From contig NZ_CANMTX010000002.1 in NCBI RefSeq assembly GCF_947500985.1, positions 558,001 through 622,000 on the forward strand: a stretch of 64,000 nucleotides of DNA, given 5' to 3'. The translations under genes were made by a program, and so were the position numbers. Source of the stretch: an uncultured Maribacter sp. Lineage in GTDB: Bacteria; Bacteroidota; Bacteroidia; Flavobacteriales; Flavobacteriaceae. The notes beneath the pieces were generated by a model. The model was given only the letters and a program-made list of their open reading frames with translations. It had not been told where the DNA came from and did no database searches. Below are positions 18,506 to 47,589 of this stretch, in pieces (position 1 is the stretch's first letter; each line of letters starts with the position of its first letter).

Positions 18506-18585
18506 GCTCGAGTGGCGGAACTGGTAGACGCGCTGGATTCAAAATCCAGTTCTTCGGAGTGCGGGTTCGATTCCCGCCTCGAGTA
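18506..18585 (+). tRNA. tRNA-Leu (anticodon CAA)
   Basis: All arms can be drawn by hand. The 7-bp acceptor stem pairs GCTCGAG (18506-18512) with CTCGAGT (18578-18584), with a G-U at pair 1-72. The anticodon stem is CTGGA/TCCAG with loop TTCAAAA, anticodon CAA at 18540-18542. There is a short class II variable arm (TCTTCGGA), and a T arm GCGGG-TTCGATT-CCCGC. The discriminator is A at 18585; CCA is not encoded. It reads UUG leucine codons. Confidence 0.96.
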
Positions 18586-26703: not shown

Positions 26704-27918
26704 ATGAGCAAGACCATACTTCATATAGATTTAGATACATTTTATGTATCCGTAGAACGATTAAATAATCGTGAATTACAGAATAAACCCTTATTAGTAG
26801 GCGGTACGGGAGATCGGGGAGTAGTAGCTGCGTGCAGTTATGAAACCCGCGGATTTGGAGTGCATTCTGGTATGCCCATGAAAATGGCGCGAGAACTGTG
26901 TCCCGATGCTGTTGTAATACGTGGTAATGCGGGTGACTATAGTAAGCATTCAGATACAGTAACCGAAATCATAAAAGAGTATGTTCCTGTATTCGAAAAA
27001 TCGAGTATTGATGAGTTCTATGCAGACCTCACCGGTATGGATCGTTTTTTTGGTTGTTACCAGTACGCTTCAGAAATGCGAAAGAAGATTATCAATGAAA
27101 CCGGACTCCCAATTTCTTTCGGATTATCGGCTAATAAAGTAGTTTCTAAAGTAGCGACGAACGAGGCGAAACCAAATAATCAATTGAAGATAGATGAGGG
27201 ATTAGAAAAACCTTTTTTAGCACCACTGTCCATTAAAAAAATACCGATGGTGGGCGATAAGACTTATCAGACCTTACGGAACCTTGGACTACGACAAGTA
27301 CGCACCGTACAAGAAATGCCCATGGAGGTGATGCAAAGGGTGCTGGGCGCTAATGGCGGAGTCATATGGAAACGTGCTAATGGAATTGATAATACACCTG
27401 TGATTCCGTTTTGTGAGCGAAAATCTATTTCTACTGAAAGAACTTTTAATAAAGACACTATTGATGTAAATAGACTACGTGGTATTCTTATCGCTATGAC
27501 CGAAAATCTGGCATATCAATTACGACGTGGAGATAAGCTAACGGCTTGTATTTCAGTAAAGATTAGGTATTCAGATTTTAATACCTATTCAAAGCAAATG
27601 CGTATTCCCTATACCAGCGGAGACCATATTCTAATACCTAAAATTTTAGACCTGTTCAAGACCTTATATAACCGTAGGTTATTAGTGCGGTTAATTGGTA
27701 TACGTTTCAGTCATTTGGTATCCGGTAATTATCAAATCAACCTTTTTGATGATACTGAAGAAATTTTAAGCCTATATAATGCTATGGATGAAATTCGAAA
27801 ACGCTACGGAGACAAAAGTGTATTACGAGCATCTGGTATGGGAGCAAAAACAATAGGAAGAATGCATAACCCTTTTAACGGATTGCCACCTGTTGTGTTG
27901 GCGCATCGGAAGATTTAA
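26704..27918 (+). CDS. dinB: Y-family DNA polymerase (DinB / Pol IV type)
   Basis: A 404-residue translesion polymerase. Palm motifs are intact: ILHIDLDTFYVSVE near the N-terminus and KSSIDEFYADLTG at about residue 100, which supply the catalytic carboxylates. The thumb helix-hairpin-helix (KKIPMVGDKTYQTLRNLGL) and the little finger domain follow. It is followed by a dnaE2-type polymerase gene 193 bp away. This matches the error-prone DinB-DnaE cassettes of Flavobacteriia, although the S24/LexA-like regulator often found with them is absent; a decayed gene lies upstream instead. Regulation by the duplicated motif and start hairpin upstream is inferred. Confidence 0.92.
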   Translation: MSKTILHIDLDTFYVSVERLNNRELQNKPLLVGGTGDRGVVAACSYETRGFGVHSGMPMKMARELCPDAVVIRGNAGDYSKHSDTVTEIIKEYVPVFEKSSIDEFYADLTGMDRFFGCYQYASEMRKKIINETGLPISFGLSANKVVSKVATNEAKPNNQLKIDEGLEKPFLAPLSIKKIPMVGDKTYQTLRNLGLRQVRTVQEMPMEVMQRVLGANGGVIWKRANGIDNTPVIPFCERKSISTERTFNKDTIDVNRLRGILIAMTENLAYQLRRGDKLTACISVKIRYSDFNTYSKQMRIPYTSGDHILIPKILDLFKTLYNRRLLVRLIGIRFSHLVSGNYQINLFDDTEEILSLYNAMDEIRKRYGDKSVLRASGMGAKTIGRMHNPFNGLPPVVLAHRKI

Positions 27919-28110
27919 TTTGGTTGTTGGTTGTTGGTTGTTGGTTGTTGAAAAGTGAAAAGAAGTTAGAGTATAGAATATAGAGAGAAGAGAGAAAGCG
28001 TGCTGAGCCGCACGCCACACGCGAAGCACAAAAAAAAATAGCGTATAGCGCGAAGCGAACAGCGCCTAGCGCAAACACGAACAACCAACAACGAACAACG
28101 AACAACCAAA
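27919..28110. repeat. 192-bp repeat island with 32-bp inverted ends filling the dinB-dnaE2 gap
   Basis: The left end (27919-27950) is built of GGTTGTT units; the right end (28079-28110) is its reverse complement over 32 bp with three mismatches. The left end begins at the base after the dinB stop and the right end finishes at the base before the dnaE2 ATG. Between them are an AGAG purine tract (about 27951-28007) and a GCG-rich stretch with several short AGCG/CGCT palindromes. No reading frame is convincing. A related island follows dnaE2. Confidence 0.8.
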
Positions 28111-31100
28111 ATGTACCTAAACTGCCACACATACTACAGCCTTCGCTACGGGACTTTTTCCGAGATTGAGCTTTTGCAATTAGCGAAGGCACATGGGGTA
28201 ACGCAATTGGTATTGACAGATATTAATAACACATCGGCTTGTTTAAACTTTGTTCGTAAAGCAGCTGAATATGATATACGTCCTATTTTGGGTATAGATT
28301 TTAGAAACGGAGTGGAACCATGCTTTGTTGGTGTAGCAAAGAATAATGATGGGTTTTTAGAACTCAATAATTTTCTGTCTCATCACATACATCACGGCAA
28401 GAAAATACCAGAAATCGCTCCGCAGTTTAAAGATGTGTTCGTTATTTATCCCTTTGAAAAAGTGTTGGAGAGTGAAAAGAAAGTCTTTGCAGCACATGAG
28501 TTTATTGGAGTTTCTGTTAACGAGTTAAAACGACTCCGTTTTTCAAGGTTATTAGAACAACGAGATAAAATTGTATTGCTACAACCGGTCACCTTTAGAA
28601 ACAAGCGCGATTTTAATGCACATCGTTTACTTCGTGCCATAGCTAATAATACTTTGCTGAGTATGTTGTCGGTTACCGAGCAGGCTCGTGATGATGAACA
28701 CATGTACGCGATACCTAATTTGGCGGCGCATTTTTCTGAACACAGCTTTATTTTAGAGAATACTCAACAGTTGATGAATGCCTGTACTATAGATTTTGAT
28801 TTTACCGAAGGGCGAGAAACACAGAATTTAAGTACCTATTTGGGCAGTAAAGCAGAAGATGAGGTGTTTTTAGAACAATTGTGCCAAGAGGGATTGCCCA
28901 AGCGTTATTCAGAAATTGACCAGGCTGTTTTAGATCGTTTAGCGAAAGAGCTTTACCTCATTAAAGAGATGAATTTTGTCTCTTACTTTCTTATTAATTG
29001 GGATATTATCTCTCATGCTCGTAAGCAGAATTTTTTTTATGTAGGTAGAGGTAGTGGTGCAAATAGCATTGTGGCATACCTGCTTTTTATTACCGATGTA
29101 GACCCGATGGAACTTGATCTGTATTTTGAGCGATTTATAAATTTGTATCGTGTGAATCCGCCCGATTTTGATATTGATTTCTCACATCGAGATAGACCGA
29201 TTGTGACGGAATATATATTCAATCGTTTTGAGAATGTAGCGCTGTTGGGTACCTACGTTACTTTTCAATCTCGGGGAGTTATTCGTGAGCTTGGTAAGGT
29301 TTTCGGTCTGCCAAAAGATGAAATAGATTTGCTGTGCGATGGAAATATTGAGGCAAGCAGGTTAGATACTATATCAACTTTAGTATTGAAATATACACAG
29401 CTACTTCACGGTATGCCTAATTACCTGAGTATACATGCTGGCGGAATCTTAATTACCGAGAAACCTATTCATTGGTTTTCAGCGACCAATATGCCTCCAA
29501 AAGGATTTCCTACTACGCAGTTTGATATGGTTATTGCAGAGGATGTCGGTATTTTTAAGTTCGATATTCTTGCTCAACGCGGACTCTCAAAAATAAAAGA
29601 GACACTTGATATTTTAGAACGTGACCGGCCCGAGGAATTTGCCAAGTTTGATATTCATGATATCAAGGCATTTAAAAGAGATCCTAAAATCAATAATTTG
29701 GTAAAAACGGCGCAGTGCATGGGTTGTTTTTATGTGGAATCTCCTGCCATGCGGATGTTATTGAAGAAGCTGGAAGTAGACACCTATTTGGGTCTCGTAG
29801 CAGCAAGTTCTATTATTCGCCCCGGAGTATCCAAAAGCGGAATGATGCGTGAGTATATTCTTCGCCATCGTAACAAGGGCAGGGCAGAAGAGTTGGCGCA
29901 TCCGGTAATGTTAGAAATTATGCCAGAGACTTATGGGGTAATGGTGTATCAAGAAGATGTGATAAAAGTAGCCCACCATTTTGCAGACCTAGATTTGGGG
30001 GAAGCCGATGTATTACGACGCGGAATGAGTGGTAAGTTTCGTTCGCGAGAAGAGTTTCAAAAAGTGCAAGATAAGTTTATGGATAACTGTCGTAAAAAAG
30101 GATATGCCGAGAAACTCATTCAAGAAATTTGGGACCAAGTAGCAAGTTTCGCAGGTTATGCTTTTGCAAAAGGGCATTCGGCATCGTATGCGGTAGAAAG
30201 TTACCAGAGTTTGTTTTTGCGTGCCTATTATCCGTTAGAATATATGGTGGCAGTACTTAATAATGGCGGCGGATTTTATAAGCCCGAGTTCTACGTGCAC
30301 GAAGCCCGTATGTTGGGTGCAACAATTCATCCGCCATGCGTAAATAAGAGTAATGCGGGAAATCGTATTTATGGAAAAGAATTGTATTTAGGATTAGGCT
30401 ATTTACGGGAATTGGAACAACGGGTCATGGAACGTATTTTAAAAGAACGCTTTGTGAAAGGTGATTTTATATCGTTGGAAGATTTCTTGGATAGGTTGAT
30501 AATCTCCATAGAACAAGTCAGTATTTTAATACGTATTGATGCATTCCGGTTTAGCGAAACCAACAAACACGAACTCCTCTGGAAAGCGCATTTATTTTTG
30601 AACAAGACCAAGAAAATAGACCACCCAAAACTGTTCGCGCCAAGGCATCAACATTTTGAGATTCCGTCATTATACAGTGCTAATCTAGAAGTTGCTTTTA
30701 CACAGCTAGAATTGTTAGGGTTTAGTTTGTGTAGTCCGTTTGAACTTTTGGTGGAAGCACCATTAAATAGTTCTGGTAGTGAAGATTTAGAGCGTTACCT
30801 GAATAAAAATATAGATATCTATGGATATTTAATAACGGTAAAGCGAACCAGAACACATAAAGGAAAAGCAATGTTTTTTGCTACGTTGTTAGACCAACAA
30901 GGGCAAGTTTTTGATACCGTACTGTTTCCGCCTGTAGCAGTGAAATATATGTTTAGGGGAAGAGGAATTTACAGATTCTATGGTAAAGTGGTCAGTGAAT
31001 TCGGTTTCTTGAGTATAGAAGTTATTAAACTTATAAAACAAGATTTCATTCAAGACCCCAGGTATGCTGATATGAAAACTAGTGCTAAAGTTTTTGACCA

Positions 31101-31158
31101 AAAGAAAACGAATGAGAAAGCTGGAGGGAGAGAAGAGAAAATAGAAGCTAGGGAATAG
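28111..31158 (+). CDS. Error-prone DNA polymerase III alpha subunit (DnaE2-type)
   Basis: A 1015-residue C-family polymerase, shorter than replicative DnaE. It has an N-terminal PHP domain with CHTYYSLRYGTF, in which several metal ligands of active PHP enzymes appear lost (N-x-H instead of H-x-H, and LTDINNT). The polymerase core has GRGSGANSIVAYL and the catalytic NPPDFDIDFS with Asp354 and Asp356. A fingers/tau-like region and a C-terminal OB fold (about 880-980) follow. The absence of a long C-terminal tail favours the ImuC/DnaE2 mutasome type. The ATG directly follows the repeat island, with no visible Shine-Dalgarno. The last dozen residues (GGREEKIEARE) are encoded by an AGAG-rich tract that belongs to the downstream island. 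Confidence 0.9.
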   Translation: MYLNCHTYYSLRYGTFSEIELLQLAKAHGVTQLVLTDINNTSACLNFVRKAAEYDIRPILGIDFRNGVEPCFVGVAKNNDGFLELNNFLSHHIHHGKKIPEIAPQFKDVFVIYPFEKVLESEKKVFAAHEFIGVSVNELKRLRFSRLLEQRDKIVLLQPVTFRNKRDFNAHRLLRAIANNTLLSMLSVTEQARDDEHMYAIPNLAAHFSEHSFILENTQQLMNACTIDFDFTEGRETQNLSTYLGSKAEDEVFLEQLCQEGLPKRYSEIDQAVLDRLAKELYLIKEMNFVSYFLINWDIISHARKQNFFYVGRGSGANSIVAYLLFITDVDPMELDLYFERFINLYRVNPPDFDIDFSHRDRPIVTEYIFNRFENVALLGTYVTFQSRGVIRELGKVFGLPKDEIDLLCDGNIEASRLDTISTLVLKYTQLLHGMPNYLSIHAGGILITEKPIHWFSATNMPPKGFPTTQFDMVIAEDVGIFKFDILAQRGLSKIKETLDILERDRPEEFAKFDIHDIKAFKRDPKINNLVKTAQCMGCFYVESPAMRMLLKKLEVDTYLGLVAASSIIRPGVSKSGMMREYILRHRNKGRAEELAHPVMLEIMPETYGVMVYQEDVIKVAHHFADLDLGEADVLRRGMSGKFRSREEFQKVQDKFMDNCRKKGYAEKLIQEIWDQVASFAGYAFAKGHSASYAVESYQSLFLRAYYPLEYMVAVLNNGGGFYKPEFYVHEARMLGATIHPPCVNKSNAGNRIYGKELYLGLGYLRELEQRVMERILKERFVKGDFISLEDFLDRLIISIEQVSILIRIDAFRFSETNKHELLWKAHLFLNKTKKIDHPKLFAPRHQHFEIPSLYSANLEVAFTQLELLGFSLCSPFELLVEAPLNSSGSEDLERYLNKNIDIYGYLITVKRTRTHKGKAMFFATLLDQQGQVFDTVLFPPVAVKYMFRGRGIYRFYGKVVSEFGFLSIEVIKLIKQDFIQDPRYADMKTSAKVFDQKKTNEKAGGREEKIEARE

Positions 31159-31306
31159 AGGAAGCGCAGTTCGCTATTCGCAATGCGCCACGCGCTTAGC
31201 GCAAAATAATCACCGCGTGAATCGTTCAGCGAAAAGCGTAATGCGAAAAGCGCCCAGCGTTTCGCGAACAGCATAAAAAACCATCAACCAACAACCAACA
31301 ACCAAT
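31159..31306. repeat. Second repeat island, downstream of dnaE2
   Basis: About 148 bp with the same order of parts as the island upstream of dnaE2: a purine AGAG tract (starting inside the dnaE2 coding end at about 31110), a GCG-rich tract full of AGCG/CGCT units, and a CAACCAACAACC tract (31274-31304). It lacks the left GTTG arm. It ends directly at the stop codon of the small gene on the other strand. Confidence 0.7.
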
Positions 31307-31444
31307 TTAGAAAGCCTCTAACACATAACCCAATATCCAAAAAAGTAGTAAGAACACAAAGAAGGTTCCTATACAACCACATTTACCGCCGCCTATTTTC
31401 TTTGCGCCGTACCAGGCACCAAAGAATTGTATTAATTTTTTCAT
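31307..31444 (-). CDS. 45-residue membrane microprotein with GGGKCGC motif
   Basis: A short ORF from ATG 31444 to TAA 31307. The protein has a basic amphipathic N-terminus (MKKLIQFFGAWYGAKKI), then GGGKCGC, then one hydrophobic helix (CIGTFFVFLLLFWILGYVL) and a short EAF end. The clear change from basic head to hydrophobic helix, and the Gly/Cys motif at the membrane edge, are unlike random AT-rich sequence. Function is unknown; the Cys pair could bind metal, form a disulfide or be lipidated. It is preceded by no obvious promoter and followed by the repeat island. Confidence 0.65.
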   Translation of the reverse strand: MKKLIQFFGAWYGAKKIGGGKCGCIGTFFVFLLLFWILGYVLEAF

Positions 31445-46098: not shown

Positions 46099-47589
46099 AT
46101 GAAAAATACGTTTATAATTCTTTTACTAATTACTTCTAATTTAGTAAGTGCACAAATTAAAATAGGGGATAACCCACAAATAATAAATACGGCATCTTTA
46201 CTGGAACTAGAAAGTACATCTAAAGTATTGGTGATTAGTAGAATGACAGAATCTCAAATGCTTGTTTTAAGTCCATTGCAAGGTGCTATGGTATATAATA
46301 CCGATGCCTCATGTATTTATTACTATGATGGTATACAGTGGAATAATTTATGCGCTGGTGAAATTACAAATAGTATATCTTGGGGCTCGTTAACAGGCTC
46401 CTTAAGTGATCAAACAGATATAGCAGCTGAATTTGAAAATTATGTAAATCTAAGCACTACACAGTCGGTAGCAGGCGAAAAAACACTCACTAATAAGTTT
46501 ACGGTAGATACAGGTAATCTTGACGCTCAAATAGCTGAATTTCTTGGTCGTGTAAAAGGAGAGGAAGGCACAGCCCCTGAAGATTTTGTGACCAAGGCAC
46601 AATTAGATGCTTCAGGTGGTGCTTCGAGCTGGGGTGCAATATCAGGAGATTTAGTCGATCAAATCGATTTAGCTTCTGAGTTCGATAATTATGTAGACAT
46701 TACTACGACACAATCGGTAGCGGGCGAGAAAACACTTACTGATAAACTGACAATAAATACAGGTGATGTAAACGCCCAAATTGCTGAATTTTTAGGTCGA
46801 GTAAAAGGAGAGCAGGGTACAGCTCCTGAAGATTTTGTAACCAAGGCTCAATTAGACGCTTCGGGTGGTGCTGCGAGTTGGGGCGCAATAACTGGAGAAT
46901 TAGTCGATCAAACGGATTTAGTAGCTGAATTTGAAAATCATGTAAATTTAAGTACTACGCAATCGGTAGCGGGAGAAAAAACACTTACTGATAAACTGAC
47001 AGTAAATACGGGTGATTCTAGCATACAAGTTGCAGAATTTCAAGGTCGAGTAAAAGGTGAAGATGGTACAGCACCAGAAGACTTTGTAACCAGATTACAA
47101 CTTGACGCGATAACTGCAGGTGGTCATACAGGAGCTGAAGGTTCAGTTTTTTTTGCAGGAGATGACACGCAACCTACTGAAGATAACGCTAACTTTTATT
47201 ATGATATTACTAATAAACAGCTGAAAGTTGGAGCATTTATAGATAGGATTCAAGATTCTAGGTATTCGGATGATTTTACCACTCTTAGTATTGAGGGTTC
47301 AGTTTCAAAACCTATTGGAATTTCTAGGATTCTAACAGAAGAGCACCACACAACTCTTATATCTAACTCTACATTTGTAACACTACCTGACCCCAGTACT
47401 TGTGTAGGTAGAATATATATTATTAAAACAAGCCCTAAAAATGCTGTTAATCCCTTGGAGGATACTAGAGTTCAAATAACGGGCGGTAATTTTTACAATG
47501 ATGCTGAGTCAATAAGGAGAACTGAATTTCCTTCAGGAAGCGTAACACAATTACAAAGTAGTGGTCAGGCATGGGAGCAAATTAATTAG
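46099..47589 (+). CDS. Secreted repeat protein with three 83-residue tail-fibre-like repeats
   Basis: A 496-residue exported protein. A signal peptide (FIILLLITSNLVSAQ) is followed by a module (about 20-90) common at the N-terminus of flavobacterial surface proteins, with NTASLLELESTSKVLVISRM and YNTDASCIYYYDGIQW. Residues 94-340 hold three repeats with an 83-residue period, each starting near SWGxxxGxLxDQxDL and including TQSVAGEKTLT and GTAPEDFVTKAQLD. The C-terminal part (about 345-496) is beta-rich and unrelated to anything I recognise. The SWG...LSDQTDL pattern also occurs in phage tail fibres. It lies among polysaccharide genes, so a role at the cell surface is likely; the ligand is unknown. 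Confidence 0.75.
   Translation: MKNTFIILLLITSNLVSAQIKIGDNPQIINTASLLELESTSKVLVISRMTESQMLVLSPLQGAMVYNTDASCIYYYDGIQWNNLCAGEITNSISWGSLTGSLSDQTDIAAEFENYVNLSTTQSVAGEKTLTNKFTVDTGNLDAQIAEFLGRVKGEEGTAPEDFVTKAQLDASGGASSWGAISGDLVDQIDLASEFDNYVDITTTQSVAGEKTLTDKLTINTGDVNAQIAEFLGRVKGEQGTAPEDFVTKAQLDASGGAASWGAITGELVDQTDLVAEFENHVNLSTTQSVAGEKTLTDKLTVNTGDSSIQVAEFQGRVKGEDGTAPEDFVTRLQLDAITAGGHTGAEGSVFFAGDDTQPTEDNANFYYDITNKQLKVGAFIDRIQDSRYSDDFTTLSIEGSVSKPIGISRILTEEHHTTLISNSTFVTLPDPSTCVGRIYIIKTSPKNAVNPLEDTRVQITGGNFYNDAESIRRTEFPSGSVTQLQSSGQAWEQIN
46378..47118 (+). repeat. Three tandem 249-bp coding repeats
   Basis: Units begin at about 46378, 46627 and 46876. They are in frame (83 codons) and differ by scattered substitutions, with the third unit more diverged in its 3' half. 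Confidence 0.85.

What the first reader, a model, noticed from the sequence alone, without database searches (positions are those of the whole stretch)
27919..28110. Intergenic element with 32-bp inverted ends fits exactly between dinB stop and dnaE2 start
Left arm 27919-27950 and right arm 28079-28110 are reverse complements with three mismatches. The first base follows the dinB stop codon and the last base precedes the dnaE2 ATG. The interior is a purine tract and a GCG-rich palindromic tract quite unlike the AT-rich genome. This looks like a miniature mobile or amplified element, or an RNA structure that sets the dinB/dnaE2 ratio. As RNA it could fold into a long hairpin that brings the dinB end beside the dnaE2 start.
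Basis: seen in the sequence. Interest (0 to 1): 0.65.

Follow-up and report, generated by a model that had tools for sequence, protein, structure and literature searches.

The report
Drifting seven-base repeat spacer between genes
The odd stretch between two DNA-repair polymerase genes looks like a spacer built of drifting seven-base repeats and not a jumping element; similar arrays elsewhere in these marine bacteria tend to begin right at a gene's stop codon, for reasons unknown.

Summary
In detail: 27919-28110 fits exactly between the dinB stop and the dnaE2 ATG, with 32-bp inverted ends and three mismatches. It is a composite heptanucleotide array, not a discrete mobile element: the genome holds only short word matches elsewhere, and repeat blocks in relatives differ by multiples of 7 nt. 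The inverted ends follow a wider rule: GTTG-type arrays run outward from gene ends (58 of 66 informative edges), and 45 of 133 stop-side edges lie within 5 nt of the stop or overlap it, against 12.6 expected (one per gene family 21 of 55 against 6.35). The RNA hairpin is strong on paper, but its arms do not covary. Xanthomonas and Nostoc heptamers show similar placement (PMC4692102). It is a multi-word variant of a known kind; why arrays start at stop codons stays open.

The parts
26704..27918 (+). dinB-type Y-family polymerase gene; its TAA abuts the element
27919..27950 (+). left arm: TTGGTTG/GTTGTTG heptads, 4.4 copies, starting at the base after the stop
27951..27995 (+). purine-rich heptads (GAAAAGT, TAGAGTA, TAGAATA, TAGAGAG), same 7-nt phase
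27996..28030 (+). GC-rich heptads; includes a small hairpin GCGTGC...GCACGC at 27998-28015
28039..28073 (+). AGCG heptads (TAGCGTA, TAGCGCG, AAGCGAA, CAGCGCC, TAGCGCA)
28079..28110 (+). right arm: AACAACC/AACAACG heptads ending at the base before the ATG
28111..31158 (+). dnaE2-type DNA polymerase III alpha gene; its last codons read by eye as TAGA-like heptads
31159..31309 (+). second composite tract 3' of dnaE2: AGCG-type words, then CAACC words; lag-7 segments at about 31165-31202 and 31228-31305

Best explanation
The 192 bp are a composite intergenic heptanucleotide tandem array. Shown: it has a 7-nt period throughout, its words drift in phase, array blocks at the same place in relatives differ by multiples of 7 nt, and lag-7 arrays occur in about 2% of sampled spacers of this genome and abut stop codons far more often than uniform placement gives. 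Inferred: replication slippage by one 7-nt unit, plus point mutation, created and keeps remodelling it in a dinB-dnaE2 junction that is overlapping or very short in several other genera. The two inverted ends are two arrays of one word class, each running outward from its gene, so they are complementary without being the terminal repeats of a transposon. The transcript may form a GU-rich hairpin, and the spacer should loosen any translational coupling of the two polymerases, but this looks like a by-product and not a maintained switch.
For: Lag-7 excess in the whole element and in the interior without the arms. Block lengths 8/15/22/50 nt in four relatives, all 1 modulo 7; other blocks 16 and 23, 49 and 63, 14 and 21. 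Only short word matches elsewhere in the genome. In 1.164 Mb, 41 of 46 mainly non-coding segments at lags 5-9 are lag 7; 13 of those stretches were centred on dnaE2, but in this genome alone it is 10 of 14. 10 of 409 spacers carry a lag-7 segment (one is a poly-T run) and the dinB-dnaE2 spacer ranks second of 242. Placement near stops and outward orientation from arrays that exclude this locus. Heptamers dominate simple repeats and slippage was proposed in print (PMC4679880 passages, PMC4692102 section 16).
Against: Slippage alone does not explain why arrays start at stop codons in one orientation; background composition accounts for the start side but not the stop side. A similar word order seen by eye at unrelated loci is not explained. 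One of two tests found variable positions clustered beyond a neutral slippage simulation (mean z 0.78 +/- 0.24 against 0.17), the other did not (1 of 125 windows at p<0.05). No strains of one species could be compared, so ongoing slippage is inferred.
Confidence: 0.75

Rival explanations
1. An intercistronic RNA hairpin kept by selection, which brings the dinB end beside the dnaE2 start and sets the ratio of the two polymerases.
For: Very stable predicted fold, z -9.2; arms abut stop and start exactly; 15 of 19 near relatives have 5 or more arm-to-arm pairs in their predicted fold.
Against: No better pairing of own arms than of exchanged arms; 4 of 19 gaps with 0-2 such pairs. The dinucleotide shuffle destroys the arrays, so the z-score says little about selection. 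No Rfam match in the element.
Confidence: 0.1
2. A binding array for a single-strand or RNA-binding protein that reads short cores every 7 nt and acts on translation, as suggested for TAACTGA repeats (PMC4679880, abstract and passages).
For: CAAC words stand before the dnaE2 start in all 19 near-clade gaps read (1-7 CAAC in the last 45 nt); some arrays keep a core and vary the rest.
Against: Core conservation is weak and one test was negative; words differ between spacers and species; 4 of 13 far-clade gaps show no array to the eye; coding-strand CAAC is also the background preference before starts.
Confidence: 0.1
3. A miniature mobile element with 32-bp terminal inverted repeats.
For: Inverted ends and exact fit. 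Short palindromic sequences do sit in this gap in several relatives.
Against: No second copy of the unit in the genome; the ends are tandem words; differences between relatives are in multiples of 7 nt.
Confidence: 0.03
4. Ordinary AT-rich spacer drift with chance low complexity.
For: Spacers vary quickly between species.
Against: Lag-7 excess beyond all of 5000 shuffles and recurrence of the same design in other spacers and genomes.
Confidence: 0.02

Closest known systems
GGGAATC / GGGGA(C/T)T heptameric repeats of Xanthomonas and Nostoc (PMC4692102; passages and sections 10, 13, 15, 16 read)
   Same: 7-nt units with tolerated variation; mainly intergenic; [quoted passage not shown] some overlap the stop codon; in Xanthomonas convergent inverted pairs (70 and 75 cases); length variation between relatives; no function found.
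   Different: One G-rich word that can form quadruplexes; here many words, without runs of three G in the GTTG class, that drift into each other within one spacer. Nostoc has few inverted pairs.
TAACTGA direct repeats of Beggiatoaceae, Cyanobacteria and some Bacteroidetes (PMC4679880; abstract, passages and section 12 read)
   Same: Intergenic heptamers close to start codons; in some Bacteroidetes other heptamer repeats lie in the same spacers; [quoted passage not shown]
   Different: A single fixed word whose one-base variants are rarely repeated in the Beggiatoaceae genome studied; here the variants make up the array.
Long simple sequence repeats with heptanucleotides as the commonest class (Mrazek 2007, as cited in PMC4679880; the paper itself not seen)
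   Same: Heptanucleotide period; polymerase slippage proposed.
   Different: Here the array is strongly drifted yet keeps its phase, and its edges abut genes.

Membership tests
Intergenic heptanucleotide tandem repeats (general class) | Period of 7 nt beyond chance | tested here: met
Intergenic heptanucleotide tandem repeats (general class) | Intergenic location, recurring in the genome | tested here: met
   128 of 130 distinct arrays intergenic; 10 of 409 own spacers
Intergenic heptanucleotide tandem repeats (general class) | Length changes in 7-nt steps | tested here: met
   between species at orthologous gaps; not tested within a species
GGGAATC-type repeats (Xanthomonas, Nostoc) | G-rich word GGGANTN able to form a quadruplex | tested here: not met
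   No GGG run anywhere in 27919-28110 (sequence)
GGGAATC-type repeats (Xanthomonas, Nostoc) | Close to the stop on the coding strand, or near the start on the non-coding strand | tested here: met
   GTTG class: 58 of 66 informative edges outward, 45 of 133 stop edges within 5 nt or overlapping
TAACTGA repeats | Direct repeats of TAACTGA | tested here: not met
   Word absent from 27919-28110 (sequence)
MITE | Dispersed full-length copies in the genome | tested here: not met
MITE | Target site duplication | tested here: inconclusive
   The element starts at the stop and ends at the start codon; no empty-site pair of close strains was available
REP-like palindromic element | Short palindromic unit repeated in the genome, with a related transposase | not tested
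   Palindromic repeats seen by eye in relatives' gaps, not in this element; no transposase search made
Known structured RNA | Match to an Rfam family at gathering score | tested here: not met
   One match in the window, a tRNA at 18506-18585

The most novel reading that the evidence does not exclude
Heptad arrays in Bacteroidota, like those of Xanthomonas and Nostoc, are made by a process anchored at the end of translation: amplification of a 7-nt unit starts at the base after a stop codon and runs outward with the G/T-rich strand as the coding strand (for example through R-loops on ribosome-free RNA), whatever the word. The dinB-dnaE2 spacer would then be one product of a stop-codon-anchored amplification process found in several phyla.
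Probability: 0.15. Interest if true: 0.8.

Novelty: new variant of a known kind. Interest (0 to 1): 0.45.

Why it matters
It turns a puzzling 'element' into an example of a little-explained habit of bacterial genomes: seven-base arrays that fill spacers from gene to gene. A similar placement rule appears in unrelated phyla with unrelated words, so the questions of why seven and why at stop codons become testable. It also shows such an array inside a translesion-polymerase operon, widening a junction that is overlapping or very short in several other genera, and perhaps supplying the last codons of DnaE2.

Tried and rejected
Mobile element: rejected and the relatives. Conserved hairpin: tested by arm exchange, no support. 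Constant-core heptads as a general rule: negative (1 of 125 windows at p<0.05, mean z 0.19), positive but modest; left open. Background composition as the cause of orientation: it explains the start side (coding-strand CAAC 47 against GTTG 9 before 258 starts) but not the stop side (GTTG 28 against CAAC 26 after 288 stops). 'The array supplies the stop codon': TAG is the stop in 26 of 45 array-abutting cases against 124 of 539 in this genome's sample, which fits words that hold TAG; but 18 are TAA and 1 TGA, the 45 come from several genomes and include orthologues. A special tie to dnaE2: in other genera the spacer upstream of dnaE2 has arrays in 8 of 33, downstream 1 of 34, other spacers 3 of 21; in Maribacter 13 of 17, 5 of 18, 0 of 4; suggestive only. 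The promoter and terminator scan gave no useful site. Literature: nothing relevant; led to PMC4679880 and PMC4692102 and to no description of these multi-word arrays in Maribacter; PMC4060949 seen by passages only; other papers seen only in listings. The library holds open-licence papers only.

Controls that say little: the tool's backwards control is the same or nearly the same repeat (CAAC and GTTG read alike backwards), so I used periods 6 and 8 as controls instead.

Rows dropped: the dinB-dnaE2 gap was read in 32 of the 33 genus genomes with a match; L078 lacks the upstream side; minus-strand loci could not be read (L089 was misread there) and were read. One search examined 28 loci of other genera: 7 had no readable upstream ORF and 2 no DinB-like end, leaving 19. 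One search used 69 of the 80 loci kept; 4 lacked upstream sequence and 15 were dropped because the ORF before dnaE2 did not end like DinB. One search used 84 loci and 42 stretches of 20 kb, without this locus; duplicates were removed (139 to 130 arrays); orthologous arrays remain, which one search corrects. In one search, 20 edges had no net GTTG/CAAC orientation; of the 8 exceptions, 5 are short spacers where the array lies within 30 nt of both genes.

Full report
What is there. The arms are complementary with 3 mismatches of 32. Family searches give a Y-family polymerase and a DNA polymerase III alpha family protein.

The hidden design. Written in rows of seven, the element is one array whose words drift in phase: TTGGTTG x4, GAAAAGT, TAGAGTA, TAGAATA, a GC-rich stretch, TAGCGTA, TAGCGCG, AAGCGAA, CAGCGCC, TAGCGCA, then AACAACC/AACAACG. 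Lag-7 identity is 0.627; other lags from 2 to 20 give 0.27-0.40 except lag 14 (0.466), and lag 21 gives 0.415. 116 of 185 positions match at lag 7 against 51.5 +/- 6.0 in 5000 shuffles (maximum 73), and the interior without the arms still gives 65 of 121 against 37.0 +/- 5.0 (maximum 55). A second tract with a similar word order lies 3' of dnaE2.

Elsewhere in the genome. BLAST of the element against its genome gives itself and short matches of at most 48 bp. In 764 kb sampled, the window included, 10 of 409 spacers of 20 bp or more carry a lag-7 segment of score 14 or more (one is a poly-T run); by whole-spacer lag-7 excess the dinB-dnaE2 spacer ranks second of 242 spacers of 100 bp or more. 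Among segments that are less than 30% coding, at lags 5 to 9, 41 of 46 have lag 7 over 1.164 Mb, where 13 of the stretches were centred on dnaE2; in this genome alone 10 of 14. The pattern GTTGTTNGTTGTT occurs 57 times, in 21 groups at 18 places. In 9 of the 21 the coding-strand GTTG array lies -1 to 4 nt from a stop codon; in two more it extends back to the stop; one CAAC array overlaps a stop.

Relatives. The genus is inferred to be Maribacter: the nearest named record is Maribacter sp. 1_MG-2023 with 96% DnaE2 identity. DnaE2 was found in 33 of 36 genus genomes and the gap was read in 32. In the near clade (19 read) gaps are 131-815 bp. CAAC stands in the last 45 nt of all 19, GTTG in the first 75 nt of 17 (two or more in 15); palindromic short repeats, TAGAATA-like and AGCG heptads were seen by eye between them. 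In the far clade (13 read, 19-386 bp) words differ, and G003, G021, G033 and G023 show no array to the eye. Block lengths at one place are 8, 15, 22 and 50 nt in four relatives, all 1 modulo 7; a second block is 16 nt in one and 23 in four; others are 49 and 63, 14 and 21.

Other genera. DnaE2 was found in 42 of 80 family genomes. Of 28 loci examined, 19 had a DinB-like gene upstream, and in 11 of these the gap is 0-16 bp or an overlap; arrays scored in 2. Among named records, 16 of 19 Maribacter gaps have a lag-7 segment of score 12 or more (median gap 276, range 2-756), against 8 of 31 in other genera (median gap 93; 13 of 31 at 80 bp or less). Some of those 8 use other words, starting at or near the dinB stop, as in Euzebyella and Muriicola.

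Placement rule. From 84 loci, found by word pattern or similarity and not by gene context, and 42 stretches of 20 kb taken at set places, 130 distinct arrays were scored, this locus left out; 128 are intergenic. Of 133 stop-side edges, 45 lie within 5 nt of the stop or overlap it, where uniform placement predicts 12.6 (maximum of 20000 simulations 22). With one case per gene family it is 21 of 55 against 6.35 (maximum 15). The list shows many different words starting at or near the base after the stop. Read outward from the gene, 58 of 66 informative edges are GTTG and 8 are CAAC: at stops 42 to 4, at starts 16 to 4. On the start side this follows background composition; on the stop side it does not. 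The inverted ends of the window's element fit this rule: one array runs outward from each of the two genes. Gene starts were taken from simple ORF calls and are less certain than stops.

Structure. The predicted RNA hairpin is strong (as DNA z -7.1), but own arms pair no better than exchanged ones (mean -27.3 against -26.8 kcal/mol) and 4 of 19 folds hold 0-2 such pairs. I regard the hairpin as a by-product.

Coding effect. A C-terminal motif search found the DnaE2 end in 10 of 14 genomes. In the window and all eight other near-clade genomes found, the last residues resemble EEKIEVRE (EEKIEARE in the window; shorter or altered in G031 and G027), coded by TAGA-like words and closed by TAG, except that G027 ends in a serine before its TAG. 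The far-clade G001 ends FNKIK. A lag-7 segment overlaps the coding end in G034, G014 and G027 only, so 'array-coded C-terminus' is partly a reading by eye.

Wider distribution. GTTG arrays of five units occur with period 7 in 29 of 148 Bacteroidota genomes (23 of 83 genera), with period 6 in 4 and period 8 in 8.

Known literature. PMC4692102 (passages and sections 10, 13, 15, 16) describes GGGAATC-type heptamers in Xanthomonas and Nostoc with a similar placement, convergent inverted pairs in Xanthomonas, and no function found. PMC4679880 (abstract, passages, section 12) describes TAACTGA repeats, with mixed heptamer assemblages in a few Bacteroidetes. Both cite the slippage idea of Mrazek, whose paper I did not see. 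The window's element is a multi-word variant of a known kind.

What remains open. Why seven, why a similar word order is seen at unrelated loci (by eye), and why arrays abut stop codons in one orientation. Slippage explains growth but not the anchor.

Noticed in passing
L136 1-95 (G000:C4:1-95) and L124 1-95 (G031:C1:1-95): Two contigs of different species begin inside arrays of the same heptad (CCAAAAG / GCTTTTG); runs of N in L188, L199 and L208 also score as or lie beside arrays. Heptad arrays may break assemblies.
   Followed up: no
L243 (G002:C1:569393-569970): A GTTGTTG array of about 578 nt, the longest seen in the listings.
   Followed up: no
G134 and G068 (same class): Many heterogeneous GTTG arrays with period 8 instead of 7, such as GTTGNAAN in G134; the period may be a lineage trait.
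   Followed up: no
dnaE2 flanks of 11 genomes: The pattern AGCG(N3) x4 occurs near dnaE2 in 11 of the 20 genus genomes that have it (G000, G004, G005, G008, G011, G012, G022, G027, G031, G032, G035); the homogeneous AGCG arrays lie elsewhere. Orthology, so not independent events.
   Followed up: partly
L333, L336, L340, L342, just after the dinB stop: Other genera carry heptad arrays with quite different words (GTTAGGG-like, CAATAAG-like) at the same junction.
   Followed up: partly
dinB-dnaE2 gaps of L065, L068, L069, L074: Short palindromic repeats, among them CCCCCTAGCCCCCAAAGGGGG placed directly after the dinB stop and a longer one with GAGGAGGCACGACGAAGTGATCTG, seen by eye.
   Followed up: no
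L161, L164, L174: At another locus a whole spacer of about 163-209 nt between two genes is one drifting heptad array, with a word order like that of dinB-dnaE2.
   Followed up: partly
window 46408-47092: Tandem repeat of 249 bp, 2.8 copies, 80% matches.
   Followed up: no
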